The notes under the pieces are model-generated. The model saw only the letters and a program-made list of their open reading frames with translations. It was not told the DNA's origin and did no database searches. DNA of 14,816 nucleotides from Cytauxzoon felis (Eukaryota; Apicomplexa; Aconoidasida; Piroplasmida; Theileriidae), in the NCBI GenBank assembly GCA_020283715.1, contig JAIQCW010000120.1, forward strand, positions 1 to 14,816. The letters are read 5' to 3'. A program made the translations under genes and the position numbers. Shown piece by piece: positions 618 through 14,816 of this stretch (positions within the stretch are counted from its first letter, which is position 1; every line of letters begins with the position of its first letter).

Positions 618-3533
618 TCATCTTGATGATAATTTCTTCTTAATCGTAGGTATACCCACATATGGTAATAATGGCTCCCTTAAATAAATTTCCACCTGTG
701 GTAATGTTTCTAACGATAATTCAAGATCTAATGCACCAGCAATCGATATAAAACCTAAACCTTTAATACATAAATCCGTCGTACACGATTTCCAACCATT
801 ACCAATGATACTAATTTTACGAATATTTGTACCATTATAACATAATTCATAATCACCAAATGGTTTATTCAATAAATATTCATCTATTTTATATGTTTTC
901 TTACCAATTATATCTATATGCTTCGATACAAATGGTGTAAAATAAAATGGTCTACCCCTCGTTATGTCTATACGAACATAAGGACCAAGTAAAAGTGTAT
1001 GACCTAAATAATTATAAATTAATTAATGAATATGGTGAATCGAGTATTGAATAGTCCACCTGAGGTCCAATCCACGTCTGTTCCACTCGCCGTGGCGGCC
1101 TTTTTTATTTACTTCCCCCTCAAACTCCCGTAGATCGTTTTCGGGTATATGATGAATTTAAGTCCCCTTAATCAGAATTATCCACTCATAAATCTCCATA
1201 TATTTACACCTTCATGATACACTATACTACTGAAATGAAGTTAAGGACCTCAAGTGGAACCCGTAAGCGATCTACGGGAGCTGGAGGGACGACTAAATAG
1301 AAGAGCCTCCACGGCGAGTGGAACAGACGTGGATTGGACCTCAGGTGGAGACGAACACTAGATGTAGTAACATCATCTCATCTACTTTGTTATTTGGTGA
1401 CAAACCTGATTTCAGTCGTAATGGTTTAATGATATTTAATGCAGATGGTACGATTATTTTAAGTTGATGTGTATTAACATGTGATGTAAGTGATTGATTA
1501 ATAACAATACCAGGTGTATCGAATAATTTAGTGTTGGTACCGATATTGATTTTAATAACATTTAAAGTTGTACCAGGTATAAGACTAGCTGATAACTTCT
1601 TTATCTTTTCATTTTTATCAACAAATGATGATAAATGATTCAATAATGTCGACTTTCCAGAATTCGTTACACCAACAAAAAATATCTTACGATTTAATGA
1701 TCGCTTAAATAATACACTCATAAATAAATTCACAGCAAATCCATTCTTCGCACTCAACTGAATATATATATATAATCACTTATAGAACTACTTTCCACCT
1801 GAGGTCCATACTGCCGTCAGCTCCTCCAACTCTCTTCGTCCTGCAGACAGCTTTCCACTTGAGGTCCTGCCGTCAGCTCTTCTAATTATCTCCCCCTCCG
1901 CTTCCCTGAGATCAGCTACGGGTAGTCCACTTGAGGTTTCCACTCGAGGTCCAGTATTATATTTGAGGTTTGACTTCGGGGTAGAGATTATTTTATTATC
2001 AAGTTCTTCGTTTGGATAATTGAGAGTAAGGGGACCGAGGAAATTTTTTTGATAATTTTCAACCCGGAAGAACGTAAATATGTTAACCCCTAAGAACAGA
2101 CCTCCACCTGAGGTTACATACACCGTAGGTCGTTCCACTCGGCGTGGAGCCTTCTTCAATTACCTATCTCTAAAGAGTAGAGCCACTCCCAGAGATCGTG
2201 GCGGTAGAGAAGGTAGTGATGGATCATCCATCATGGGAATGATGGAAGATGGTTCTATGGATGTATTGGATGTAACCTCAAGTGGAATACCCGTAGCTGA
2301 TCTCAGGGAAGCGGAGGGGGAGGTAAGTAGAGAAGCTGTCTGCAAGACGAAGGAAGGTGGATTGGACCTCAGGTGTAGGACTTAGAGTGATTGTTGTATA
2401 TATGGTATGAAACATACTAGGAAGATATTTTTGAGGTAGAGTTTGCGATGATTGAGTTTATTATTGATGAATTTATGTATATAATGTATGATTCTGTTAC
2501 GATTATGGTGTGGTAAAAGATCGATTTTATTAACGACAATATAGAGATTGATATATTTATTTCTATTGGATAATAAATTTGCTAATCCTTGTTCAAAATG
2601 TAGATCCATAATATCCATAACATATACGATTGTAATTTTATCTTTTTTAAATCTATTTAATGCATTTTTTAAAATGGTAATAGTTTCTTTAGAAGCTTCG
2701 ATAGCATTTATAAAATGTGTAGTATTATTATTATTAAATATTAAACCACTATACATATTTGAACAACGTTTACATCTTACTTTATTATTTTTTTCTCTCT
2801 CTAATATATAATCATCTATATAACCAGATTTATTTTCATTTAATGTTTGTAATTTTATACCACAACCATAACATTGTGATAAATCTGTATCAATTTCAAA
2901 TTTTTGTATTGCTAAACGCCATAAATTATTATTCTTCTCTTTAATTTTTTCTTGTTCATTTAATAATTTTGTCATTACATTTAATTCTGTTGATTCATCT
3001 TCTTCCTTTAATTTTTTTTCTGTATTTATTAACTCTTCTAATGATACATTATCAAATGGATCTTTCTTTTCAATCTTAGATTCTATATCCCATTTTCTAG
3101 ATGCTTTAATTAATTCTATATTACTATCATCATAAGGATACAAGTTATTATTTAAAGGTTGTACGATATCTAGATCATTATTAGTATCTTTATCCTTTAA
3201 ATTAATCTCTTCATTTCCTACTTCAAGTGTTTGGACATCAATATATCTTCTAGTTCCTCTAGTATTCCTTGTCCTTTGACGTGGTGTAGATAGACCTTTG
3301 ACATTGAGTGCATGATCAACAATGATTTCATCATCTTCAAAAGTTTTAAGTTCATTTTCAAGTTCTATTATATCAATTTTAGTGTCATTAGCTTCAAGAC
3401 TATAAATAGGAGCGAGTTTGCGATAAAATTTTATAAATGAAGGGTAATTTGCACATTTATTAGATTTTAAATAAATTAAACTAAAAACTACATTATTCAG
3501 TAATATTATTAAAAAATAATGGCAAAATACCAT
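618..3533 (-). CDS. NOA1: Circularly permuted GTPase of the YqeH/NOA1 family (3 exons)
   Basis: Exons, in gene order, are 3533-2418, 1757-1406 and 1003-618, giving 617 aa with consistent phases (0, then 1). Family members are GTPases that assist assembly of the small subunit of bacterial-type ribosomes in organelles. Visible motifs, in permuted order: a zinc finger CYGCG (221-225) with CKRC (254-257); G4 NKIDLLP (335-341); G5 SAK (374-376); G1 GVTNSGKST (401-409); G2 PGTT (433-436); G3 DTPG (452-455). The exon 2/3 join restores L-R-L-K-S-G-H-T-L-L-L-G, the usual block after the G domain. The N-terminus is hydrophobic (about 3-22) and then polar, like a signal plus transit peptide, so apicoplast targeting is possible; mitochondrial targeting is the alternative. 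Residues 45-215 are an acidic, charged insert before the finger. Introns of 660 and 402 nt both carry the GC-rich repeat. Confidence 0.9.
1055..1349. repeat. GC-rich inverted-repeat element, copy A (in NOA1 intron 2)
   Basis: The copy ends are TCCACCTGAGGTCCAATCC and its reverse complement. The outer 41 nt of the two arms (from 1055 and back from 1349) are perfectly complementary, and the complementarity continues with a few mismatches to 1137 and 1268. The interior (about 1150-1235) is AT-richer and unlike the other copies. The flanking intron keeps 56 nt after the donor and 51 nt before the acceptor. No target-site duplication is evident. Confidence 0.9.
1794..2377. repeat. GC-rich inverted-repeat element, copy B (composite, in NOA1 intron 1)
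   Basis: This is the longest copy. It has at least six end-type motifs (TCCAC-YYGAGGT or its complement), two near 1925-1955 and one at 2101, so it looks like several units joined or inserted into each other. It holds the CTGCCGTCAGCTC and TCTCTAAAGAGTA blocks, a 39-nt core at 2061-2099 shared with copy E, and a 44-nt block at 2209-2252 identical to copy I. Residual intron is 40 nt on the donor side and 36 nt on the acceptor side. Confidence 0.88.
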
Positions 3534-3615
3534 TTAATTTAGATTTTCCATATACTAATCTACACCAATAATATTGTACACCATAAATCAATCAGTTCTC
3601 AATCAATCTTTAACT
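3534..3615. promoter_or_regulatory. Short divergent spacer between NOA1 and PRCC
   Basis: Only 82 bp separate the two start codons (3533 on minus, 3616 on plus), so both promoters and 5' leaders must sit here or overlap the neighbouring gene. A shared bidirectional promoter is inferred; no specific motif is recognised. Confidence 0.5.
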
Positions 3616-5298
3616 ATGGATTGGATCAGAGCTGGTTTAAATAATGATACCAATGATTCAAGTGATATAGAAGAGGATATAAATGATAAATCGCAACCAG
3701 ATTTAATTATAGATGGCATTAACACAACAACAAAGGATACATACAGCCCATACATCTCAAACTTATCAAAAGCACTCGGTACTCATTATCCAAATGATAA
3801 TATAATCGCATCTAAAATAACTCCATCATCTAATAATATAACCACGCCCTGTCCTGCTACCAGCTCCTTTAATTACCTATCCGTTACTGGTAATATTACC
3901 CCCGGATATTACGGATATATACCCGGAGCGGATCTCAGAGAAACGAAAGGGGAAGTAATCAGAAGAGCTTCAAATGTTAGTGGAATATGTAGTCTTCCTA
4001 CGTCTGAGGTCGGTCTTGCAGACAGCTCTCCTAATTACCTCCCCGTAAACGGTAATGACACTCCCGGAGATCGTGTCGGATGTGAGTATTGGACCTCAAG
4101 TGGAATATTCGAGACAATCTACGGGAGTCGAGGTGAAGTAAATAGAGAGGCCACCACGCCTAGTGGAATGAATAATAGTACTGGACCTCGAGTGGAGCCC
4201 GAGAGCGATCTACGGGAGCTGGAGGGGGAAGTAAATGGAAGAGCTGTCAGCATGACAAAGGAAAGTGAATTGCCTGGTGCAATAGACATGGATACAACTT
4301 CTGGTGGTAACGGTTGTACTTTCAACGTTATGAATACTGTATCGTCAGGAAATTTGTTTTCCTATGATAATTCAAGGCGGAATACTGAGACATTTAAGGC
4401 TGTAAAGATAAATGTACCTCAATGTGTTAATGACGAAGAGATCGCATCAGCAATATCTAAACCTCATATAACCACTCCTGTTATTCCAATACATACACCC
4501 AATACTGTAAATAATGCCCAAATATTTAAAGTTAATGACCCATCATTAATGAAGGGAGTAAATTTATCGGACGTAAGTTTAATACTTATAATAATTCAAT
4601 TCTATAGTGGACTGATCCATCATTACGAGTCGTCGATATCAAAGCCGATGATCTACGACTAAGCAAAGAGTATGTTTACCCACACTCATACCACATGAGG
4701 TCCAATCACTATCTTCTCCACTCGCCGTGGTGGCCTTCCTTATTTACTTCCCCTTCCAGTTCCCATAGATCGCTTCCAGGTATTCCACTTCCACTTGAGG
4801 TTACATCCTTACTACCTTCACCTCCGCCACGATCTCTGGGAGTGGCATTACTCTTTAGAGATAGGTAAATAGAAGAGCCACCACGGCGAGTGGAAGACAA
4901 TGTTGTAACCTCAGGTGGGACAGCTAGTGGAAGAGTAGATGATAGCGATTGGACCTCGAGTGGAATGTTATATATAAATATAAATTAATTATTATTATAG
5001 GGAGAAGGAGCGTGCGTATTCTAAGGATGCATTGACTCAGGAGAGGAAGGCATTTATAATGCCCAGTAGAATATTAGAGACATCGGATGGTCACATATTA
5101 ACATCAAATGTAGTAAGACGTACACAAAAAAGGAAACATCAAGTTAGTTAATCATCTCATTGTTCATAATTTAATCCTCATCACTATTAGATCAACTGGT
5201 TAGCATCTGAAGCACAAGAACGTGAATTAGAAATCCTCGAACAAACCGCACATATGAGAAAAACCAAACATGAAACACAAATGAAATATGGATGGTAA
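3616..5298 (+). CDS. PRCC: PRCC-like nuclear protein (4 exons) with an in-frame repeat in exon 1
   Basis: Exons 3616-4572, 4608-4669, 5001-5142 and 5191-5298 give 422 aa with matching phases (0, 2, 0). The C-terminus carries the PRCC signature: KEEKERAYSKDAL, then KRKHQINWLASEAQEREL, then the ending TQMKYGW. In other eukaryotes PRCC family proteins are nuclear and spliceosome-associated, with a variable, disordered N-terminus and a conserved C-terminus, as here. The start is the first ATG followed by M-D-W-I-R-A-G; an upstream in-frame TTG is not needed. Residues about 79-219 are translated from a copy of the genome's GC-rich repeat (copy C). Intron 2 (331 nt) holds copy D; introns 1 and 3 are 35 and 48 nt. 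Splicing out the exonic repeat cannot be excluded, but no intron is required because the frame is open throughout. Confidence 0.85.
3850..4270. repeat. GC-rich element, copy C, lying within PRCC exon 1
   Basis: A diverged, composite copy: the CAGCTCCTTTAATTACC block at 3870, GATCTCAGAGAAACG at 3930, CTTGCAGACAGCTC at 4015, ACTCCCGGAGATCGTG at 4059, GGACCTCAAGTGGAAT at 4091, GGACCTCGAGTGGAG at 4183 and CGATCTACGGGAGCTGGAGG at 4205. The frame used by PRCC is open across all of it and contains three versions of a D-L-R-E-x-x-G-E-V-like peptide (the middle one degraded). Boundaries are approximate because the ends are degraded. Confidence 0.8.
4691..4964. repeat. GC-rich inverted-repeat element, copy D (in PRCC intron 2)
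   Basis: The ends are CCACATGAGGTCCAATC and GATTGGACCTCGAGTGGA. A nested inner pair, CCACTCGCCGTGGTGGCC (about 4719-4736) and its complement near 4876-4893, brackets a core with ATCTCTGGGAGTGGC and the self-complementary TACTCTTTAGAGATAGGTAA block. Residual intron is 21 nt after the donor and 36 nt before the acceptor. Confidence 0.9.
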
Positions 5299-5335
5299 TA
5301 AATACTATCTAATATACCATCTACTCTTCAACTTG

Positions 5336-5578
5336 ACTACACTTGAGGTTACCTCCACCGTTGGTCTTGCAGACAGCTCTTTTAATTACATATCTCTAAA
5401 GAGTAATGCCACTCCCGGAGATCGTGGCGATGATGATGCCTGTTCTTCCAGGTAGAATTCCTGTTCTTAGGGGTTAACATATTCACGTTCTTCCGGGTTA
5501 ACAAAATACCGAGGATGATCTACGGGAATCCGAGGGGAGATAAATAGAAGAGCTGTCTGCAAGACGACCTCGGGTGGA
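5336..5578. repeat. GC-rich element, copy E (just after the PRCC stop)
   Basis: Begins about 38 nt after the PRCC stop codon, so probably within its 3' untranslated region. The arms are GTCTTGCAGACAGCTCTT (5368) and AGAGCTGTCTGCAAGACGAC (about 5550-5569). The core holds ACTCCCGGAGATCGTGGCG and a 39-nt block (5461-5499) that is the reverse complement, with one mismatch, of 2061-2099 in copy B. Confidence 0.85.
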
Positions 5579-5817
5579 ACGGCTCATCATTGTCAACTAA
5601 TAGTTTTGATAGATTGTATTATTTAGATATGTAATATCATTATAAAATATTTAATATTAATATAATTATGTTAGATGTGTATATGAATGAGTTTAATATT
5701 GAGGTATAGGAATCTTGATGATAGCTTCCCCCATGATATTGATTCTATAGATTTATTATATTGTATTTTGTAAACTAATAATATGGTGCATAAATAATGT
5801 AGTTATTAAATGTTATA
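5579..5817. other. Upstream region of the mitoferrin gene
   Basis: AT-rich spacer between copy E and the carrier start. It is G-rich over C on the + strand. It presumably contains the carrier promoter and 5' leader; no motif stands out and no further coding exon is seen. Confidence 0.5.
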
Positions 5818-7057
5818 ATGATAGAGGCGGTTAAGAATCCTCTTGATTGGGAAGATTGGAATGGTATGTTGAGATATATATATAGACATTGATTATATAT
5901 ATATAGGTGAAATACCATTTTGGCAACATGCAATATGTGGTAGTATAGCAGGTATAATGGAACATTTATGTTTATTCCCATTGGATACTATAAAAACACG
6001 GATACAGATAAGGATATGTAAATGTATAAATAATAATAATATTAGATTAATAAATAATAATATTATATCGCATAATTATAAAAATTTATTTAGAGGATCA
6101 AATATTATAATCATAGGTTGTATACCCGCCCATATATTATATTTCACTGTATATGAAAATATTAAATTAATCGGTAATATACCAATCGCTGGAGCATTCG
6201 CTACTCTATCACATGATATCATACTTACACCTGCTGATGTCATTAAACAAAGATTACAATTAGGTTGTTATAATGGATCATTACACTGCTTCAAATCCAT
6301 CATCAAATATGAAGGCTTCAAATCACTCTTTAGAAGTCTATCAATTACACTCCTTATGAACGCACCATATCACTCTCTCCTAGTCACTATTATAGAAATA
6401 CTCAAAAAAAGATATAATACCAATAATAATCTCAACTACTTTGTTTATGCCGGTTTGTCAAAAATACCCATAACATAATCATCGTCTAATCCGCTCGCCG
6501 TTCCACCCGAGGTCGTCTTGCAGACAGCTCTTCTATTTACTTCCCCCTTCGCTTCCCAGAGATCAGCTACGGGTTCCACCTGAGGTCACATCACTACCTT
6601 CACCACGATCTCCGGGAGTGGCTCTACTCTTTAGAGATAGGTAAATGGAAGAGCTGTCTGCAAGACGACCTCGGGTGGAAGTGGAAGAAGAGTTGGATTG
6701 GACCTCGAGTGGAGTTTTTCTTTGATATATTTATTTTATAGGTATAGGTGGAGCTGTTGCGGGTGCCTTGACGACACCTATGGATGTGATAAAGACAAAA
6801 TTGCAGACACAGACATGTTATTTGAAGACTGATTCAAATGTATTTAAGCCATTGTATAGGGTGTGTTTAGATGTATAATTTAATATAATTAATAATAGAA
6901 TGTGACATCGACTGCATTTACTATACTTCGGGAGAATGGTTTTAGAGGATTTTGGAAGGGTATTGGTACAAGGGTTGGTATATGTATACCGGCAGCAGCA
7001 ATATCTTGGGGTACTTATGAAACACTTAAAAATTTTATTAAAATATTAATTGTTTAA
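5818..7057 (+). CDS. MFRN: Mitoferrin-type mitochondrial iron carrier (SLC25 family, 4 exons)
   Basis: Exons 5818-5863, 5907-6452, 6742-6860 and 6899-7057 give 289 aa, the normal size for a mitochondrial carrier. Three repeats each have the signature PLDTIK (40-45), PADVIK (124-129) and PMDVIK (210-215). Features specific to the mitoferrin (Mrs3/Mrs4, SLC25A37/28) branch are AGIMEH before the first signature, C-I-P-A-H (87-91, usually G-P-A-H), the S-H-D before the second, and M-N-A-P (166-169, usually M-N-I-P). It would import iron across the inner mitochondrial membrane. The start is an ATG giving a short acidic leader, M-I-E-A-V-K-N-P-L-D-W, before the W-Q-H-A of helix 1. Intron 2 (289 nt, donor GTTTGT) contains repeat copy F; introns 1 and 3 are 43 and 38 nt. 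The loop after repeat 1 is Asn-rich. Confidence 0.85.
6491..6713. repeat. GC-rich inverted-repeat element, copy F (in mitoferrin intron 2)
   Basis: The arms TTCCACCCGAGGTCGTCTTG and CAAGACGACCTCGGGTGGAA (outer part of a stem that extends through GCAGACAGCTCTTC) are exact complements. Inside are GAGATCAGCTACGGG, CACGATCTCCGGGAGTGGC and TACTCTTTAGAGATAGGTAA. A further end motif GGACCTCGAGTGGA closes it at 6713. Residual intron is 38 nt (donor side) and 28 nt (acceptor side). Confidence 0.9.
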
Positions 7058-7384
7058 TTTATTTATATTTTGTAATAATTTCTTACGTACTTTTTTGAGT
7101 AAATTTTTATTAGTTGTGATATTAGTAGTATTAACTACCTCTCTCTTTTTATTCTTCTTTACCTCTACTTTGTTATTAGATGTAACATTAATTTTAATGG
7201 ACTTGGATCTTTTATTACGTCTATTTTTAATTAATTTACTGACTTGATTTAAATTTGATAATTTTTTCAAGTCAATTTGAGATTTAATGGATTTTGGTAA
7301 GCCTTGTTTATAAAGATTTAGTTGATGATATGTATTTATAGGATCATTATATGAATTATTATTAGAATCTTTATTAATATCCAT
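7046..7384 (-). CDS. Small Lys/Asn-rich protein of unknown function
   Basis: A single-exon ORF of 112 aa, not recognised. Residues 1-50 are polar (N-K-D-S-N-N-N-S-Y-N-D, then a Leu/Lys stretch G-L-P-K-S-I-K-S-Q-I-D-L-K-K-L); the rest is strongly basic with K-N-R-R-N-K-R-S-K-S (about 53-62) and K-K-N-K-K-R-E (about 76-82), resembling nuclear or nucleolar basic proteins. The first ATG at 7384 is used. Its last four codons overlap the end of the mitoferrin gene on the other strand. An ORF of this length is uncommon by chance in such AT-rich DNA, and it forms a head-to-head pair with 14-3-3, which favours a real gene. A rival frame on the + strand (7050-7247) is hydrophobic only because it is the complement of Lys codons. 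Confidence 0.5.
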   Translation of the reverse strand: MDINKDSNNNSYNDPINTYHQLNLYKQGLPKSIKSQIDLKKLSNLNQVSKLIKNRRNKRSKSIKINVTSNNKVEVKKNKKREVVNTTNITTNKNLLKKVRKKLLQNINKLNN

Positions 7385-7736
7385 AATAATTAATAATTAT
7401 AACAAGAGGATATCTATTATTATTAAATAATAAATATTAATATAATAAAATATTATACATTATACACATTATTATTATTAAATTTACACCCTACAGATAA
7501 TATTTTATGTTACACCTGTGAGGCCATGAGCCTCCACCCCCACTGTATATTACCTATAAAGTTAATGATATTTATAAATTTAGATATTAAAATAACTATA
7601 TTATATTTTTAATATCTAATTTTGAATTCAATTATTTTTTTCATATTGAATTTCATTTTATAATTAAAAATTCCGTCAGTGTATTCATAATTTATATATC
7701 ATATAATATATCATCACCATTTATTACCACTTAAAT
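7385..7736. promoter_or_regulatory. Divergent spacer upstream of 14-3-3
   Basis: A 352-bp AT-rich region between two divergent starts, so both promoters should lie here. At 7503-7546 there is a single GC-rich island containing GAGGCCATGAGCCTC, which can fold as a 5-bp stem with a 5-nt loop, followed by CACCCCCAC. It is unlike the GC-rich repeat family. No copy of that family is present. Confidence 0.5.
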
Positions 7737-8909
7737 ATGGCGGAAGAAAATAACCATCGCTCAGAACTTATTTATACTTCCAAATTAGCCGAACAAGCTG
7801 AGCGTTATGATGGTATGTACATCATACACCCTAATTTAATCATTATTGTCTAGAAATGGCAGATGCTATGAAAACTTTAGTTGAGACATGTATAACAGAT
7901 AAAGAAGAATTGACAGTCGAAGAACGTAATTTGTTGGTATGTTTATTGAATATCTAACATATTATAATACATATTAGTCTGTTGCATATAAAAATGCTGT
8001 CGGATCAAGAAGAGCATCCTGGAGAATCGTTTCCAGCGTAGAACAAAAAGAAGCCAGCAAATCAAATACCACACACAAAGCATTCGCTAGCGAATATCGT
8101 ACCAAAATCGAAAAAGAACTCAATAAAATTTGCACTGATATACTAGGACTACTCAATTCCAAACTCATACCCTCCACCACCGTATGTTTACATTCCACTC
8201 GAGGTCCAATCCACCTGAGGTCCAATCCTACTCTTCTTCCACTCCCCGTGGAGGCATTCTCCATTTACATCCCCCTCCGCTTCCCTGAGATCAGCTACGG
8301 GTTCCACTTGAGGTCATGTACTCACTACCTCTACCTTTACTGCCACGATCTCTGGGAGTGGCTATACTCTTTAGAGATAGGTAATTGGAAGAGCTGACGG
8401 CAGGATGAAGAGTAGGATGGAGTAGAGATGATAGTGATTGGACCTCAGGTGGAAAGCTTAATGTATCCTTTATGATTTATTTAAATATGATATTTATATA
8501 GGAGAGTGAGAGTTTGGTATTTTATTATAAGATGAAGGGCGATTATTATCGTTATATAAGTGAATTTACATCAGATGATGGTAAAGCGAATGCATCTGCT
8601 GCGGCTAAGGAGTCGTATCAGAAGGCTACTGAGATAGCGGAGGCTTCATTGAAGCCTACACATCCGATTAGGTTGGGTCTTGCATTAAATTTCTCTGTAT
8701 TTTATTATGAGATATTATGTAGACCACAAGATGCTTGTGAAATGGCAAAGCGTGCATTTGATGATGCAATTACAGAATTTGATAGTGTTAGTGAAGATAG
8801 TTATAAAGATTCTACATTAATTATGCAATTGTTAAGAGATAATCTCACATTGTGGGCATCTGATATTCAAAGTGACTCAGTTGATGATAAAAATAAAGCT
8901 GAAGAATAA
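7737..8909 (+). CDS. 14-3-3 family phosphoprotein-binding adaptor (4 exons)
   Basis: Exons 7737-7812, 7854-7936, 7978-8181 and 8502-8909 give 256 aa, full length for the family. 14-3-3 proteins are dimeric adaptors that bind phospho-Ser/Thr motifs and regulate kinases and trafficking. Diagnostic blocks in order: [23 protein letters not shown] (joined across intron 2), [10 protein letters not shown], then [16 protein letters not shown] (after intron 3), [19 protein letters not shown], and [16 protein letters not shown] near the C-terminus. The groove residues K, R, R and Y expected in these blocks are all present. The tail is acidic and ends A-E-E. Introns 1 and 2 are each 41 nt; intron 3 is 320 nt and contains repeat copy G, with codons beside it shifted to C-ending on the left and G-ending on the right. 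Confidence 0.97.
8194..8453. repeat. GC-rich inverted-repeat element, copy G (in 14-3-3 intron 3)
   Basis: Starts only 12 nt after the donor and ends 48 nt before the acceptor. Two tandem left ends (TCCACTCGAGGTCCAATCC and CCACCTGAGGTCCAATCC) are followed by GAGATCAGCTACGGGTTCC, then ACGATCTCTGGGAGTGGC and TACTCTTTAGAGATAGGTAA, then GATTGGACCTCAGGTGGA. Confidence 0.92.
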
Positions 8910-9396
8910 TTTTCTTGATTTGTGTAGTATATATTTATTTTTTATAACTGAAGTTTAGTTGTAGGAAGGTAGAAGTATACTTGTATGAAGTTGTAGATGT
9001 AAATGGTGTATAGAATAATTATTATAATATATATAGTATATAACTACTAACATGATATGAAGTATTATACTAACTATATTGTACTTATAGTAATATTACT
9101 TAACTAACTTCTAAAATATTATACTTCAGTTATACTTCAATTATAAATGATGAAATGGCTATAGTTTTATAATAATACTTGTGTTATAACATCATTGGAT
9201 ATCATACTATACTTCTACTATAAACTTGCCCTACAAATATAGGGCGAATTATGGTGCATAAAAAATTATTGGGCAATTTAAATTAAAAGTTATAATAATC
9301 TAGTTTAAATGTTACGATAATTTTCAAATATCATTGAATCATGTACATTTTACTATAATAAATTTGTAATAATAAAAGTCTTTCATTTATAATACA
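8910..9396. other. Convergent 3' region between 14-3-3 and the membrane-protein gene
   Basis: A 487-bp AT-rich tract between two converging stops. It holds many copies of ATACTTC or its complement and a long-range inverted repeat ATAACTGAAG (about 8945) with CTTCAGTTAT (about 9124). A small hairpin GCCCT-(8 nt)-AGGGC sits at 9228-9245. These may be 3'-end signals. No gene and no GC-rich repeat is seen. Confidence 0.5.
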
Positions 9397-10200
9397 TCAT
9401 TCTTCATCAGAATTGAATTCATTATAAACATGCGATAATCCCAATTGTTTGGCATAATTGGTAGATGAACGACGTAATTGCCAATTCCAAGCTTCAGTAC
9501 CCTGACCAAATCTTTTAGCTTTAAGTCTTTGATATTCTGGTGTTTTATAAAGTTTATCTAATTCATTCTTGGTAAATTTGGAATCTCTATAATGGAATAA
9601 TGATGAATGTACCATATTAGTACAATATCTAGGACCAAATTTAGCTTTAAATAATGTAAATAGATCACAAGTAGTATTAATAAACCATTCAACTAATAAA
9701 AAAAATAATAATAAATAAACACATAATATCCATTGATTTAATGTATTATGTTTATATACTAATGATACATAATCTGGATGATATGGTTCAAGTAAATTTA
9801 ATAAATCATCAGTTTTTTCTTTTAAAAATATTACTGGATCTACTAATACATTATGTGTCTTGACAAATTTAACAACATTTCTTGTAACATCCCTTTTATA
9901 TAAATTTAAATTTATCAACACAGAATAAAAATCATTAGTTCTTGTTAATTTTGGTGATAAGAATTCTAAAATTAATAATCAAATTGAAAGATGGTAATAA
10001 ATCAACATACCTAATAATGCAGATAATGAAAATAATAAGAATAAAAATAATCTAAAGAATAAAATAAGATTATTATATGGTTTATAGAATTCTTCTTGTG
10101 TAAATTTAGATTTATTATAAACCTCTCTAATTTTAGATTCAGAGGTGGTTTTGGGGGCAAATTTTGTATTGTTAGTACGATTCAGATAATTATATACCAT
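9397..10200 (-). CDS. Two-pass membrane protein of unknown function (2 exons)
   Basis: Exons 10200-10011 and 9965-9397, joined across a 45-nt intron (GTATGT...TTTTAG, phase 1), give 252 aa. I do not recognise the family. Two strong membrane segments are visible, about 44-66 (ILFFRLFLFLLFSLSALL) and about 140-160 (WILCVYLLLFFLLVEWF). Between them is a roughly 75-residue mixed loop; the C-terminal part is hydrophilic and basic with the motif F-G-Q-G-T-E-A-W-N-W-Q-L-R-R and an acidic end, S-D-E-E. There is no cleavable signal peptide. The ATG at 10200 is the first in-frame ATG; an earlier TTG is ignored. Composition is ordinary for the region and no repeat copy is associated with the gene. Confidence 0.65.
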
Positions 10201-10326
10201 TTCTTCTAACAATTTATATATATTTAAGCTAACATTTTATATATACCATACACCACCTATAAGATTTTATATAAATTGAAACCTAAACATACCTAAATAA
10301 AAAAAATAACAACTTAATTATTAATA
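10201..10326. promoter_or_regulatory. Divergent spacer
   Basis: About 126 bp of AT-rich DNA between the membrane-protein gene and the proposed start of the secreted-protein gene; presumed promoters for both. No motif recognised, and no repeat copy. Confidence 0.35.
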
Positions 10327-11529
10327 ATGTTAGATAAAGTTAGTTTTATTTAATTATTCTATGAACATCAACTAATAGAAATAAGATTTCATATATAATT
10401 ATATACTGTGCATTATGTTGCACTGATGCAGTATTAAATTCTATAATATTATACTAATATTTACAGATTAATCCTAAAAGACAATTATTAATTAATAAAA
10501 GACATGTATATTATAAATTATCTATCAATTTATTATTCATTCAATAGAATATTGATGTCGTTATTGTCGTTTTTATTGTCTTTACCCATAACATCATTAC
10601 ATCTATTGGGTCTTCCTATGCAATAACTAATTATAATGATGGTATTTTTTTAAAAAAACAAATATTTTTATAATTAATTTAGATCCATGTCTTGAATTTC
10701 CAAATAAAATTTGTAAATATTGCCGTGATTTAACAATTCCAAAACATATATATCAAACATTCCCTGGAATTGATATATTCTCTAAAGATATCAATACACT
10801 TGTACATGAATATGTATATTTCACTTAATTTCATTAATAATATCCATTATTTATCATATTTAGCTCTCTAACATCACAGAACAAATATTTATTAGACAAA
10901 ATGATGCATCAGATATTATAATTACACAACTAGTTGAACAAGCTAATAGAATAGCTATGCCAATCGGGTTTTTATTTAATAAGAAGCCAAAGAGGTAATT
11001 AGCTATTTAATACTATTAGATATAATATTATATTTAGTTTAGAAGGAATTAGTATATTAATTGAAAATTATGTTAAATGTGTCAAGATGAAATCACAAAA
11101 TTATGCAAAGGGTTAGTGAAGTGATGAATAAACTTTTCAATCCACCATCATCACTACTATCCTTTTATCCTTAATTTAGATGTATTAGAGAAGATTAAAG
11201 TTGCAAATTTCGGTGAATTACCTGATTTAATAAATACTTTAACTGATGGCTTAATGAATTTGAAACATGTCACCTTCATAACACTAGGTGATATAATGGG
11301 TAGTATAAAATGCCATCAAATTTATACAACAGTCAGACATTGTTGCCTACGCAATTATCTTAATGAATTATCAAAAACAAAAATAATATCTTATGATGAT
11401 GTTAATATCGTTTCAAATACTAAAGAATGTATGGATTATAATAGTGTAACACAAGAGATCACTACATTAATTTACAATCTTGATAAACAACAGGAGGATA
11501 TATGTAATAATCTTAATATATTAAAATAA
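10327..11529 (+). CDS. Putative secreted Cys-containing protein of unknown function (about 8 exons)
   Basis: Proposed exons are 10327-10338, 10386-10430, 10467-10505, 10548-10641, 10683-10813, 10864-10994, 11038-11111 and 11180-11529, totalling 291 aa with every phase consistent. The last four or five exons are well supported; the first exon is the weakest because its acceptor would be AAG rather than the TAG/CAG used elsewhere. The N-terminus would read MLDK-ISYIIIYCALCC, a plausible signal peptide, followed after exon 3 by a second hydrophobic stretch V-V-I-V-V-F-I-V-F. Cysteines include D-P-C-L, K-I-C-K-Y-C-R-D, K-C-V-K, I-K-C-H and R-H-C-C-L. No known domain is recognised. Introns are 36-68 nt with no repeat copy. 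It could be a lineage-specific secreted or surface protein, but that rests only on the signal-like leader and cysteines. Confidence 0.6.
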
Positions 11530-11617
11530 TATCTACAAATATATAATTTTTAATAATTGTTTTTGTTTTAATGGTTTACCTCCTTGATAATTATCAACCT
11601 CTGTGTCCATCAATATA

Positions 11618-13383
11618 ATGGATGATGAAACACAGGATAAAAATGATAACGATGATGCTTTAAACTGGTGCTTAAATAATGGATATGTCATACCAAAATG
11701 GCTACAAAATTGTAATATAAAATGCCCATTCGTTAAAGGTAATATCATCAATGGCAAATACGGACCCATCAATTACTCTATCGCCGGAGATCCAAACAAC
11801 CCAATCGTATGTTGAAATATCATTCACTATATCATATCATTCTATCCACTTGAGGTCCATCCTGCCGTCAGCTCCTCTATTTACTTCCCCCTTCGCTTCC
11901 CTGAGATCAGCTACGGGTCCCACTCGAGGTCCAATCACTGTCTTCCACTACTTCATTTTTACCTCCAAAATTTGAAGGAATTCCTGAATTTCTGGGGAAA
12001 CTCATGAAGATTGTGGAGTGAATATTGAATGTATTTCTAATTTCAATATCTCATTGAAAAGGACTTTGATGATTGTATTGAGTTTACTCATCCTCACTTC
12101 ATTCCAATTTATATTCATTGAGATATCCTCGTTTATGTGGATTCTGTCACTTTAGTCGTATCTCGTCGAGATTAGATTTATAACCTCAAGTGGACTACCC
12201 GCAGCTGATCTCAGGGAAGCGGAGGGGGAAGTAAACAGAGAAGCTGACGGCAGGATTGTGACCTCAAGTGGAGTTGGATGTAACCTCAAATGATGATATT
12301 GATGATATATAGGTATTAACATTTCATGGTTTTAATGCTTGTCATACTGCATTTTCTTCATATCAGAATGTATTGGGTAAGAATGGTTATCATGTGATAG
12401 CATTTGGTAAGTTTGTATTGATATTGATATATATTAGTTATATAGATATGTATGGTCATGGTTTGAGTGGTCATCCTCGTTATAAAGTATTTGGTGATAC
12501 ATTTACAGCAAAATTTTTTGTTGATCAAGCAGATGAATTGATAGATTATTTAGGTTATAATGGTCGTATATTATCATTGATAGGTATATCAATGGGTGCA
12601 TGTATAGCAGCTGAATATTGTAGATATCATCCAGATATAGTTGATAGATTAATAATGATATCACCTGCTGGTTTATTATTAAAGAAACGTAAAAGGATAA
12701 AAATATTGAAATGTATACAATGTTTAATACCTATAATACCATGTTTTATATCAAAATGTTGTTTTAAACGTCATATAAAGAAATTAGATAATGATGAATT
12801 AAGTCCTATAATTAATCGTTTATTATGGACATTATTTATTACACCTAATTCTATTAGTAATTTATTAGGTGTTGCTAATAGAATACCATTATGGTCATCT
12901 AGAAAAATATTTAGACAAGTTGGTAAATTAGATAAATTAACATTATTTTTATTTGGTGAAAATGATAATTTAACCCCACCTTATTTATCAGATGAATTTA
13001 AATTATATTTTACTAATTCACATTCTATTATATTTCCAAATTCTGATCATTTATTATCATATAAAATGCCATTACAAGTTATTAGTACATGTTTATCATT
13101 CTTAGGTATACCTTCTGATGAACGTATAGAAAATTTTAAAAAATGGTTACCATTCAATGATAAAGGTGAATATATACCCAAAGTTGAACGTATTATTACA
13201 CTTAATCGTACAAGCAGCTGCCCTGATATACAAGAATATATTACACATAATCATACACGTTTCAAACATAAATTCCAATTTTTCAATACCGAACATTTCA
13301 AACCAAATAAATTACCAACATTACAACTAGATGATGATAATACACAACGAGTTCCACTCGTACTCATCACACAATTCGAATAA
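11618..13383 (+). CDS. Alpha/beta-hydrolase fold serine hydrolase (3 exons)
   Basis: Exons 11618-11806, 12313-12406 and 12446-13383 give 406 aa. The joins rebuild the canonical fold: I-V-L-T-F-H-G-F-N (strand plus oxyanion loop, about 63-71), F-D-M-Y-G-H-G-L-S-G (94-103), nucleophile elbow G-I-S-M-G with Ser143, the acid F-G-E-N-D with Asp268, and P-N-S-D-H with His296. A basic, Cys-rich insert (about 170-205) is probably the lid. Substrate is unknown; a lipase, esterase or lysophospholipase-like role is typical for such proteins. The C-terminal 90 residues extend beyond the core. Intron 1 (506 nt) contains repeat copy H. Intron 2 is 39 nt, in frame and free of stops, so an unspliced reading looks like one long ORF; removing it restores the DxxGxG block. 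An upstream GTG at 11603 is not needed. Confidence 0.87.
11845..12272. repeat. GC-rich inverted-repeat element with long unique interior, copy H (in hydrolase intron 1)
   Basis: Arms at 11845-11932 and 12181-12272 are closely complementary, sharing TCCACTTGAGGTC, CCTGCCGTCAGC and TTCCCTGAGATCAGCT. Between them lie about 240 nt (11940-12180) with no similarity to other copies in the window. An extra end-like TAACCTCAAATGA follows at 12281. Residual intron is 38 nt and 40 nt. Confidence 0.9.
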
Positions 13384-13394
13384 TACTCTTCCAT

Positions 13395-13679
13395 TCCACC
13401 GAGGTCCAATCCACCTCTTTTTGTCTTGCAGACAGCTCTTTCAATTACCTATCCCTGAAGGGTAAAGCCACTCCCAGAGATCGTGGTGAAGGTAGTGATG
13501 GATCATCCATCATGGGAATGATGGAAGATGGTGCTAAGGATGTGTAGTACTGGACCTCGAGTGGAACCTGGAAGCGATCTACGGGAGCTGGAAGGGGAAG
13601 CAAATAAGGGAAGCTGTCTGCAAGACGACATCAAGTTGAATGCCTAGTGGAATGAGAGTAGGATTGGATCTTAGGTGGA
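13395..13679. repeat. GC-rich element, copy I (just after the hydrolase stop)
   Basis: Begins 12 nt after the hydrolase stop codon. It has TCCACCGAGGTCCAATCC and, at the far end, GGATTGGATCTTAGGTGGA. Inside are GTCTTGCAGACAGCTCTTT with its partner AAGCTGTCTGCAAGACGAC, CACTCCCAGAGATCGTGG, a 44-nt block (13488-13531) identical to 2209-2252 of copy B, and GCGATCTACGGGAGCTGGA. Confidence 0.9.
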
Positions 13680-13929
13680 CTTCGTGTGATTATGTATGTA
13701 TTATAGGATGTTATTTTTAAGTTGCCATAATTTATGGTATTTTACCTTTACAGTGTATAGATAATGAAGAATTATGATGTATACTAGTACTTAATATTTC
13801 AAGATACTGGAATTGTATTATAATATTAATTTAATTTTAAATGTATGATTATACACATTTATGTCTACATGTTCTTTAGATATGTAGTGATATATGATGT
13901 TGAGATTAATTTATTTAAATTTTATATAA
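13680..13929. other. Upstream region of bL27m
   Basis: 250 bp of AT-rich sequence between copy I and the bL27m start. The + strand is richer in G than C near the repeat. No exon or motif is recognised; it should contain the promoter. Confidence 0.45.
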
Positions 13930-14556
13930 ATGTTGAATTTTAATAATATTTTTAATTCATGTAAAATATCTTTATTATGGAAGTATGAATTATATCGTTT
14001 TAAAACTGTAAAAGTATCAGCTTATAAAAGACCCTCTAGGTCATCACCTACTGGTCAATCTAAGAAGGCTAATATAGGTATTAAACGCTTATCTGCAGAA
14101 TATGTAAGACCTGGAGAATTAATTGTAAAACAGAGGAAATTTATAGCACATAATCCAAATGTTACAAGAAATAGACATTTTAAAATCTACCCGGGTGAAA
14201 ATGTCGGTGTTTCATCAAAGACTACAAGTCTATACGCATTAGTTGGTGGTAGAGTAAAATATACACACGATATTAATAAAAATATTAAATTAGCCAACGT
14301 ATTACCCGAACCGCCAGATGAATTATTACGAGATGACTTATGGAGATATAGAACCGAACACATTACATCAATAGAAGATAATTGTGCTCTAATATGGAGA
14401 CGAATCAAAAGCGCATACTGTCAATCACATCTATACCCACTCATTAATCCACCACTCAAACCACCGCCAAGATTAAAATTCCAATCTAAATACGATCAAT
14501 GGGAAAATCCAGCATACCCCAATCTACCACTCAATTATAGATTCCCACCCAAATAA
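13930..14556 (+). CDS. MRPL27: Mitochondrial ribosomal protein bL27m
   Basis: A single exon of 208 aa. The bL27 core is clear: GIKRLSAEYVRPGELIVKQR (50-69), then Y-P-G-E-N-V-G (87-93) and LYALVGGRVKY (101-111). bL27 is a large-subunit protein whose N-terminal region lies close to the peptidyl-transferase centre. Compared with bacterial L27 (about 85 aa) there is a roughly 35-residue N-terminal leader rich in K, R and hydrophobic residues, consistent with a mitochondrial presequence, and a roughly 90-residue C-terminal extension with W-R-Y-R, proline-rich P-P-L-K-P-P-P-R and ending F-P-P-K, typical of mitochondrial rather than plastid forms. An apicoplast L27 is the less likely alternative. 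The last 150 nt are strongly C-rich next to copy J. Confidence 0.88.
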   Translation: MLNFNNIFNSCKISLLWKYELYRFKTVKVSAYKRPSRSSPTGQSKKANIGIKRLSAEYVRPGELIVKQRKFIAHNPNVTRNRHFKIYPGENVGVSSKTTSLYALVGGRVKYTHDINKNIKLANVLPEPPDELLRDDLWRYRTEHITSIEDNCALIWRRIKSAYCQSHLYPLINPPLKPPPRLKFQSKYDQWENPAYPNLPLNYRFPPK

Positions 14557-14591
14557 ACAATAATCTATATCACTAATTAGATATTGTATAC

Positions 14592-14816
14592 TCCACTCGA
14601 GGTCCAATCCTACTCTTCTTCCCACTCGCCGTTCCACCTGATGTCACAATCCACCTTTCCTTGTCTTGCAGACAGCTTCTCTATTTAGTTCCCGTAAACG
14701 GTATAGCCACTCCCAGTGATCGTGGCAATATTAACCCGGAGGAACAAGGAATGTCAACGCGAAGGAACTAATGTTAAGGATGTAACCTCAAGTGGAACCC
14801 GTAGCTGATCTCAGGG
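14592..14816. repeat. GC-rich element, copy J, cut by the window end
   Basis: Begins 36 nt after the bL27m stop with TCCACTCGAGGTCCAATCC. Contains CTTGCAGACAGC, GCCACTCCCAGTGATCGTGG, AACCCGGAGGAAC (related to the block shared by copies B and E), and TAACCTCAAGTGGAACCCG followed by GTAGCTGATCTCAGGG at the edge, so the right arm continues outside the window. Confidence 0.85.

What the first reader, a model, noticed from the sequence alone, without database searches (positions are those of the whole stretch)
1611..14591. Strand composition flips at the GC-rich elements: C-rich to the left, G-rich to the right, regardless of gene strand
My hand counts on the + strand: left of F (6301-6480) C41/G15, right (6721-6900) C17/G39; left of G (8041-8190) C39/G17, right (8461-8640) C17/G44; left of B (1621-1790) C32/G14, right (2381-2580) C10/G41; left of C (3721-3840) C29/G8, right (4281-4440) C22/G35; left of I C45/G15, right C12/G26; left of J (14401-14580) C53/G13; E, D and H behave alike but less strongly. 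At F and G, A>T accompanies C on the left (G: A64/T30). The copy A left flank is the exception (C20/G23), its right flank fits. The flip occurs at B although NOA1 is on the minus strand, so transcription direction does not explain it. A leading/lagging-like asymmetry (local replication origin) or strand-biased break repair or gene conversion centred on the elements would give this shape. I know of no described equivalent at a 200-nt scale.
Basis: partly seen in the sequence, partly recalled or inferred. Interest (0 to 1): 0.88.

Follow-up and report, generated by a model that had tools for sequence, protein, structure and literature searches.

The report
Repeats that tilt neighbouring DNA composition
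In this tick-borne-parasite-like genome, many short GC-rich hairpin repeats leave a lopsided footprint, rich in C on one side and in G on the other, for about 200-300 letters into the neighbouring genes whichever way those genes run, probably because DNA repair keeps copying the repeats over one another.

Summary
The nine hand counts given with coordinates are exact. In 252 kb of the same 8.6 Mb piroplasm genome (window included), 151 element clusters show the same flip: 118 of 128 with free flanks, mean 0.163 against 0.000 (sd 0.016) for shifted positions. It fades within 300-400 nt on the left and more slowly on the right. At third codon positions 51-100 nt away the skew is -0.66/-0.70 on the left and +0.68/+0.61 on the right for plus/minus frames: it follows the side of the element, not the gene strand. 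Against distant sites it looks like A-to-G plus C-to-T on the strand running 5'->3' away from the element.

The footprint does not stretch where elements are far apart, which argues against forks travelling from an origin. The elements are modular and exchange sequence: linkage is nearly gone beyond 20 nt, and long identical tracts lie inside elements and favour near neighbours. Best reading (about 0.5): recurrent ectopic gene conversion at fixed elements, with strand-biased errors in outward repair synthesis; the causal link is inferred. Divergent transcription is the main rival. Nearest known: composition skew at meiotic break hotspots; yeast mitochondrial GC clusters.

The parts
1050..1354 (.). 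element A; right flank fits (C20/G34), left flank does not (C24/G24)
   Evidence: edges, counts
1790..2389 (.). element B, composite, inside a gene on the minus strand; both flanks fit
   Evidence: + letters at third positions left C15/G0 of 55, right G18/C0 of 60
3845..4307 (.). element C, lying inside one open frame (3559-4659); left flank fits, right flank flat
4687..4968 (.). element D; right flank fits, left nearly flat (C31/G29)
5317..5585 (.). element E; both flanks fit
6477..6718 (.). element F, between two exons of a mitochondrial-carrier gene; both flanks fit
   Evidence: Pfam Mito_carr in the left exon; the right exon was read by eye; 6496-6718 folds with z -8.46
8190..8458 (.). element G, in an intron of a 14-3-3 gene; both flanks fit
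   Evidence: the right exon matches 14-3-3, the left exon was read by eye
11840..12292 (.). element H, between exons of an alpha/beta hydrolase gene; both flanks fit; shares a 253-nt exact tract with an element on contig C98
   Evidence: hydrolase
13385..13682 (.). element I, between the hydrolase frame and the L27 frame; both flanks fit
14588..14816 (.). element J, cut by the window end; left flank fits strongly (C51/G13)
6299..6475 (+). carrier exon left of F: third positions C17/G2 of 59, Leu mostly CTC/CTA
6744..6869 (+). carrier exon right of F: third positions G15/C1 of 42, Leu mostly TTG
8041..8181 (+). 14-3-3 exon left of G: third positions C17/G0 of 47
8502..8681 (+). 14-3-3 exon right of G: third positions G21/C1 of 60; further right (8682-8906) G7/C3 of 75
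14374..14553 (+). L27 exon left of J: third positions C13/G3 of 60, against C4/G10 of 90 at the far end of the exon

Best explanation
The elements are GC-rich, hairpin-forming, modular repeats that mostly stay where they are and act as hot spots of ectopic recombination. Breaks or gaps arise inside an element (hairpin or cruciform processing is the likely cause); the ends are resected some hundreds of bases into the unique flanks; the interior is copied from another element; and the flanks are refilled by synthesis that runs outward from the element. The strand made on each refill is the one running 5'->3' away from the element (top strand on the right, bottom strand on the left). If that synthesis leaves mostly G.T wobble errors (dG opposite T, dT opposite G), the outward strand turns A to G and C to T, which gives C>G and A>T on the left and G>C and T>A on the right, whatever the gene strand. 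Shown here: the footprint, its range, its independence of gene strand, the transition-like shift against distant sites, and conversion-like exchange between element interiors. Inferred: that breaks occur, that resection and refill make the footprint, and the error chemistry.
For: Footprint tied to elements and to the outward strand. Range not set by the distance to the next element. Longer elements and longer arms do not weaken it; flip rises with element length (rho 0.29, n 128) and slightly with arm length (rho 0.14, n 233), as expected if the range counts from the element edge. Linkage between module columns falls from mean r2 0.44-0.47 at 1-2 nt to 0.02-0.03 at 20-34 nt and 0.01 beyond; 79 of 90 full X copies and 65 of 71 full Y copies are distinct combinations. 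17 of 11,325 element pairs share an exact tract of 60 nt or more; 5 of 17 lie within 5 kb against 392 of 11,325 overall (Fisher p 2e-4); the tracts cover the element midpoint in 21 of 34 placements (12.4 expected) and touch an element end in 0 of 34. Element H and an element on C98 share 253 identical nt inside, with a dissimilar outer right arm and no similarity in the flanks. Variants rarer than 5% make up only 1.4-1.5% of module bases, while third positions beside elements are shifted far more, so interiors look refreshed and flanks look old.
Against: No direct evidence of breaks, resection or repair synthesis. The changes are inferred from composition, not from polarised substitutions. Number of neighbouring elements does not predict skew (rho 0.05, n 128). 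Predicted fold energy predicts skew overall (rho -0.35, n 128) but not among elements of 200-340 nt (rho -0.15, p 0.17, n 83). Amino-acid change is not raised near elements (hydrolase 11 of 52 near, 38 of 144 far; L27 1 of 28 near, 8 of 101 far; low power). With a 50-nt threshold the midpoint preference is weak (56 of 190 against 49.9 expected), and several of the 17 pairs share elements, so they are not independent. One pair (C1 2637-2976 and 3391-3746) also shares a 55-nt tract that does reach the element ends. One-sided elements show skew mainly beyond their outward end (20 of 24 against 9 of 15 at the other end; paired p 0.12), which fits transcription at least as well. Low rare-variant load could also come from selection on the elements.
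Confidence: 0.5

Rival explanations
1. Divergent transcription: each element starts short RNAs outward on both sides. The outward strand is then the non-template strand, and transcription-coupled repair plus single-strand exposure (R-loops) give A-to-G and C-to-T on it over the first few hundred bases.
For: Both asymmetries are described for non-template strands, the C-to-T one concentrated near transcription starts in mammals (PMC2927911, discussion part 1). Coding frames 600-1500 nt from elements carry a mild asymmetry of the same sense on the coding strand: G among R-ending two-fold codons 0.24-0.32 against C among Y-ending 0.14-0.16. One-sided elements show skew mainly at the outward end.
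Against: Nothing here shows transcription from elements. Elements also sit in introns and inside open frames (24 of 151), where outward starts on both strands would be costly. It does not by itself explain exchange between elements.
Confidence: 0.2
2. Insertion-time mutagenesis: each element arrived by an error-prone copying event that mutated its flanks once; the footprint is a fossil of insertion.
For: Range set from the element edge; short clusters, some of them partial, have weak footprints (11 elements under 130 nt: -0.028 and +0.041).
Against: Third-position C goes from about 0.09 to 0.25 beside plus-strand frames, very much for a single repair event. Only 1 of 151 elements has a partner of 95% identity or more over at least 90% of its length (82 of 151 have any partner at that length), so recent whole-element insertions are rare in this sample.
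Confidence: 0.13
3. Local replication origin: elements fire as bidirectional origins and leading/lagging bias gives the flip.
For: The sign (G and T excess on the outward strand) is that of classical leading strands (recalled).
Against: The footprint does not lengthen where the next element is 2-4 kb or more away; non-coding skew 600-1500 nt away is almost zero; about 5.5 elements per 10 kb on the two long stretches would be very many origins.
Confidence: 0.07
4. Target preference or decayed element arms: elements landed in places already C-rich on the left and G-rich on the right, or the flanks are old arms.
For: Element modules have the same polarity, C-rich type before G-rich type in 122 of 126 clusters with both types. 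The strongest element-free flips are somewhat more often C-left/G-right (11 against 6 at threshold 45).
Against: Flanks include coding exons with the skew strongest at third positions. At threshold 30, element-free C-left/G-right flips are not commoner than the reverse (53 against 57).
Confidence: 0.05

Closest known systems
Base-composition skew at meiotic double-strand-break hotspots (mouse, human)
   Same: Composition skew at recombination initiation sites, cited as a sign of repair-associated mutation (one passage in PMC6116924). That the skew changes polarity at mouse hotspot centres is recalled (Smagulova et al. 2011), not seen in a call.
   Different: Here the sites are fixed repeats of one family in a protist genome and the effect reaches about 0.7 at third codon positions; breaks have not been mapped; the direction of the mammalian skew was not compared.
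Yeast mitochondrial GC clusters (GC42 and kin)
   Same: Short GC-rich palindromic elements in an AT-rich genome that merge and shuffle, with substitutions next to the element taken as co-conversion tracts (PMC4478555: abstract and outline; passages).
   Different: These are in a nuclear genome, about 100-600 nt long, in introns, open frames and between genes; a strand-polar footprint over 200-300 nt was not among the passages that I saw there.
Transcription-associated mutational asymmetry near transcription starts
   Same: A-to-G and C-to-T excess on one strand, localised (PMC2927911, abstract and discussion part 1).
   Different: Kilobase scale at gene starts in vertebrates; here 200-300 nt on both sides of repeats and independent of gene strand.
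Introners (introner elements)
   Same: High-copy short repeats, some lying between exons.
   Different: At element G the intron ends lie outside the element, and other elements lie in open frames or between genes.
Rickettsia palindromic elements (recalled)
   Same: Palindromic repeats that can lie in frame inside protein genes; 24 of 151 clusters here lie inside one open frame.
   Different: Bacterial; no sequence comparison was made; whether these frames are translated is unknown.

Membership tests
Recombination (break-repair) hotspot with composition skew | Skew that changes sign at the site and fades within some hundred bases | tested here: met
Recombination (break-repair) hotspot with composition skew | Exchange of sequence initiated at the site | tested here: inconclusive
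   exchange among elements is indicated by lost linkage and shared internal tracts; initiation was not seen
Recombination (break-repair) hotspot with composition skew | Mapped double-strand breaks | not testable with these tools
   no break data held
Replication origin | Skew reaching as far as forks travel, hence toward the midpoint between neighbouring origins | tested here: not met
   near zero by 300-500 nt also where the next element is 2-4 kb away (36 sides)
Replication origin | Nascent-strand initiation | not testable with these tools
   no replication data held
Divergent promoter | Outward RNA starts | not testable with these tools
   no RNA data held
GC-cluster-like palindromic repeat | GC-rich, hairpin-forming, modular, shuffled | tested here: met
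   one element, F, folds with z -8.46; module order; lost linkage
GC-cluster-like palindromic repeat | Mobility shown by presence/absence between strains | not testable with these tools
   only one genome was available
Introner | Element carries its own splice sites and so makes the intron | tested here: not met
   read at G only: exon ends at 8181 and restarts at 8502, element 8190-8458; one intron is a small sample
Known structured RNA family | Rfam match at gathering score | tested here: not met
   0 matches in the window

The most novel reading that the evidence does not exclude
A nuclear genome in which several thousand palindromic repeats form one genome-wide gene-conversion network: each repeat is a long-lived, sequence-encoded break-and-repair site that is overwritten again and again from other copies, and whose outward repair synthesis rewrites base composition, and with it codon choice, in about 200-300 nt of every neighbouring gene. 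(The number is an extrapolation: 110 clusters in 200 kb of contigs C4 and C9, to 8.62 Mb.)
Probability: 0.35. Interest if true: 0.9.

Novelty: new variant of a known kind. Interest (0 to 1): 0.74.

Why it matters
It is a natural case of a strand-biased mutational process with a known address. Many copies in one genome let the range, strand and type of the changes be measured from sequence alone. It shows codon choice being set by the side of, and distance to, a repeat: in the carrier gene Leu is CTC/CTA in 7 of 9 codons left of F and TTG in 4 of 5 right of it. That is a trap for codon-usage and selection analyses. If the repair reading holds, it links the persistence of palindromic repeats to their being repaired into one another, and makes the polarity of repair-synthesis errors testable.

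Tried and rejected
Replication origin: set aside as the main cause because the footprint does not lengthen with element spacing. In the same table the skew nearest the element is lower at the most isolated sides (0.16-0.17 for 13 sides with gaps over 4 kb, 0.30-0.34 for 78 sides with gaps of 0.7-1.2 kb), but neighbour number and distance had no significant effect when tested per element. Pre-existing flips as targets: no excess of element-free C-left/G-right flips at threshold 30, a small excess at high thresholds. Decayed arms: the flanks include coding exons with skew strongest at third positions. Transcription of the host gene: both gene strands behave alike. Strong sequence context (deaminase-like): none seen; G among A/G sites rises 1.6- to 2.1-fold and C among C/T sites falls to 0.44-0.69 of its distant value in every single-neighbour class. 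Raised protein change near elements: none in two genes. Arms of one element being more alike than arms of different elements (fold-back copying): not seen (X 0.778 against 0.789; Y 0.735 against 0.806). Rfam: no match in the window. An exact 29-nt module pattern in the prokaryote and viral contig collections: none. Element F against plasmids: none. The third protein search (a minus-strand frame beside B) gave one weak hit (E 2.7e-6) and was not used for alignments. The ten paper searches listed no description of these elements; the library lacks most subscription journals, and I saw listings of the top results only.

Rows dropped before counts: 23 of 151 clusters lack two free 150-nt flanks and are not in the 128. 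Clusters that broke the order rule (4) were left out of the arm test. Columns with fewer than 100 letters were left out of the variant counts. Coding frames are open frames of 360 nt or more chosen by length, not gene models. Loci L001-L030 were fetched around the end motif, so they over-represent elements; contigs C4 and C9 were taken in full stretches. Fold energies use RNA parameters.
Full report
WHAT WAS CHECKED. Its L27 protein is 81% identical to that of Theileria parva over 88% of the query and its hydrolase matches Theileria best, so it is a piroplasm. Size and G+C (0.31-0.33 in the window and the two long stretches) resemble those printed for Cytauxzoon felis (9.1 Mbp, 31.8%; passages of PMC3748084). 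The species is not proven.

The nine counts with coordinates are exact. Elements were marked in 252,225 bases by two rounds of blastn from the ten window copies: 151 clusters, 41,247 nt, median 258 nt. On the two contiguous stretches there are 51 in 120 kb and 59 in 80 kb. The end motif GGACCTCNAGTGGA occurs 996 + 971 times in the whole genome, its reversed control 0 times.

THE FOOTPRINT. Left of elements C exceeds G and A exceeds T; right of them the reverse. GC skew is -0.24 to -0.30 on the left and +0.24 to +0.29 on the right over the first 150 nt. On the left it is -0.12 at 151-200 nt and near zero by 400 nt; on the right it is +0.21 at 151-200 nt, +0.07 at 301-400 nt and still +0.05 to +0.08 at 401-600 nt. 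Shifted positions and element-free points show nothing comparable; element-free gaps between same-strand frames show little. In coding frames the effect is strongest at third positions: left 51-100 nt -0.66 (plus) and -0.70 (minus), right +0.68 and +0.61. First and second positions mostly move the same way but less. In the window the 14-3-3 exon left of G has C17/G0 at 47 third positions and the exon right of it G21/C1 at 60; the minus-strand frames around B have (+ letters) C15/G0 of 55 and G18/C0 of 60; the carrier gene around F has C17/G2 of 59 and G15/C1 of 42, with C7/G7 of 100 further away. At two-fold sites G among R-ending codons of co-directional frames is 0.53 at 51-100 nt against 0.24-0.32 beyond 300 nt, and C among their Y-ending codons 0.06-0.07 at 51-150 nt against 0.09-0.16. 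In frames on the other strand C among Y-ending codons is 0.29 against 0.10-0.14 and G among R-ending codons 0.08-0.10 against 0.16-0.24. Read on the outward strand this is A-to-G plus C-to-T, relative to distant sites. It is a statement about composition, not about polarised substitutions.

SHAPE AND WHAT IT EXCLUDES. The decay does not lengthen where the next element is far, and long elements or long arms do not weaken it. Forks travelling from a central origin would predict otherwise. Element-free flips of the same sense are not in excess at a moderate threshold (53 against 57), with a small excess at a high one (11 against 6), so elements do not merely mark an existing pattern. Coding frames far from elements carry a mild asymmetry of the same sense on the coding strand, which keeps a transcription-based cause alive.

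THE ELEMENTS. They are built from two modules (X with a C tract, 270 hits; Y with a GCCAC...GTGGC hairpin, 198 hits), separated by CCACYYGAGGT-type ends. In 122 of 126 clusters with both module orientations the C-rich orientation precedes the G-rich one. Element F folds far better than shuffles (z -8.46; one element tested so). Most module columns are either nearly invariant or have two or three common alleles; variants rarer than 5% are 1.4% (X) and 1.5% (Y) of bases. Linkage between polymorphic columns is high only over a few bases, partly at paired stem positions (for example Y columns 31 and 38, r2 1.00), and nearly lost beyond 20 nt. Exact tracts of 60 nt or more join 17 of 11,325 element pairs. 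These pairs are often close neighbours (5 of 17 within 5 kb, 3.5% of all pairs), the tracts cover the midpoint in 21 of 34 placements (12.4 expected) and touch an element end in 0 of 34; one pair has a further 55-nt tract that does reach the ends. The clearest case joins window element H to an element on C98: 253 identical nt inside, a right arm that turns dissimilar at once, a left arm that diverges further out, and no similarity in the flanks. I read this as ectopic gene conversion among elements that stay in place. One element of 151 has a partner at 95% or more over at least 90% of its length (82 of 151 have any partner at that length; median best identity 77.6%).

MECHANISM. If breaks in elements are repaired by copying another element, the resected unique flanks must be refilled from the element outward, and the refilled strand is the outward one. 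Recurrent G.T wobble errors on that strand would give the two transitions. This ties the exchange among elements to the footprint beside them, and explains why the range counts from the element edge, is some hundreds of bases, and ignores gene strand. The tie is inference. Results that do not help it: neighbour number, fold stability at fixed length, amino-acid change near elements, and the one-sided elements (20 of 24 skewed beyond the outward end, 9 of 15 at the other end, paired p 0.12), which could equally fit outward transcription.

PRIOR ART. Composition skews at DSB hotspots of mouse and human are cited as support for repair mutagenesis in PMC6116924 (one passage). Yeast mitochondrial GC clusters are the closest mobile-element analogue (PMC4478555, abstract, outline and passages). 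Local A-to-G and C-to-T asymmetry in transcribed DNA is discussed in PMC2927911 (abstract and part 1 of the discussion). A review of strand asymmetries (PMC10030826) and a paper on GC-rich yeast origins (PMC3945215) were looked at by term only. My ten searches listed no account of these piroplasm elements or of such a footprint.

VERDICT. Observation confirmed and generalised; the origin idea is not supported; break repair or gene conversion is the most likely cause but unproven; novelty: a new variant of a known kind.

Noticed in passing
window 3845-4307; also C9 28693-30741, C3, C4 and C1 (24 of 151 clusters): Elements lie inside long open frames that continue on both sides; one frame on C9 (27338-31258) holds three of them. 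They may be translated.
   Followed up: partly
window 11940-12178: The core of element H is itself a repeat: 40 scored matches of 402 first-look candidates in the own genome, most at 85-89% identity, one (C98) at 98%.
   Followed up: partly
window 1952-2098: The core of element B recurs too: 42 matches, the best at 93% on C23, in the opposite orientation.
   Followed up: partly
C4:38650, 14729, 5111, 74104: Strong C-left/G-right flips 600 nt or more from any recognised element; possibly lost elements, but such flips are not clearly commoner than the reverse kind.
   Followed up: partly
module Y columns 31/38, module X and Y columns 7/9: Small hairpins in the modules exist in alternative versions with matched changes on both sides (r2 1.00), as if the pairing is kept.
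   Followed up: partly
window 13383-13930: A Babesia protein (P0054) carries both hydrolase and L27 domains, the two genes that are neighbours here, so the gene order seems old; element I lies between them.
   Followed up: no
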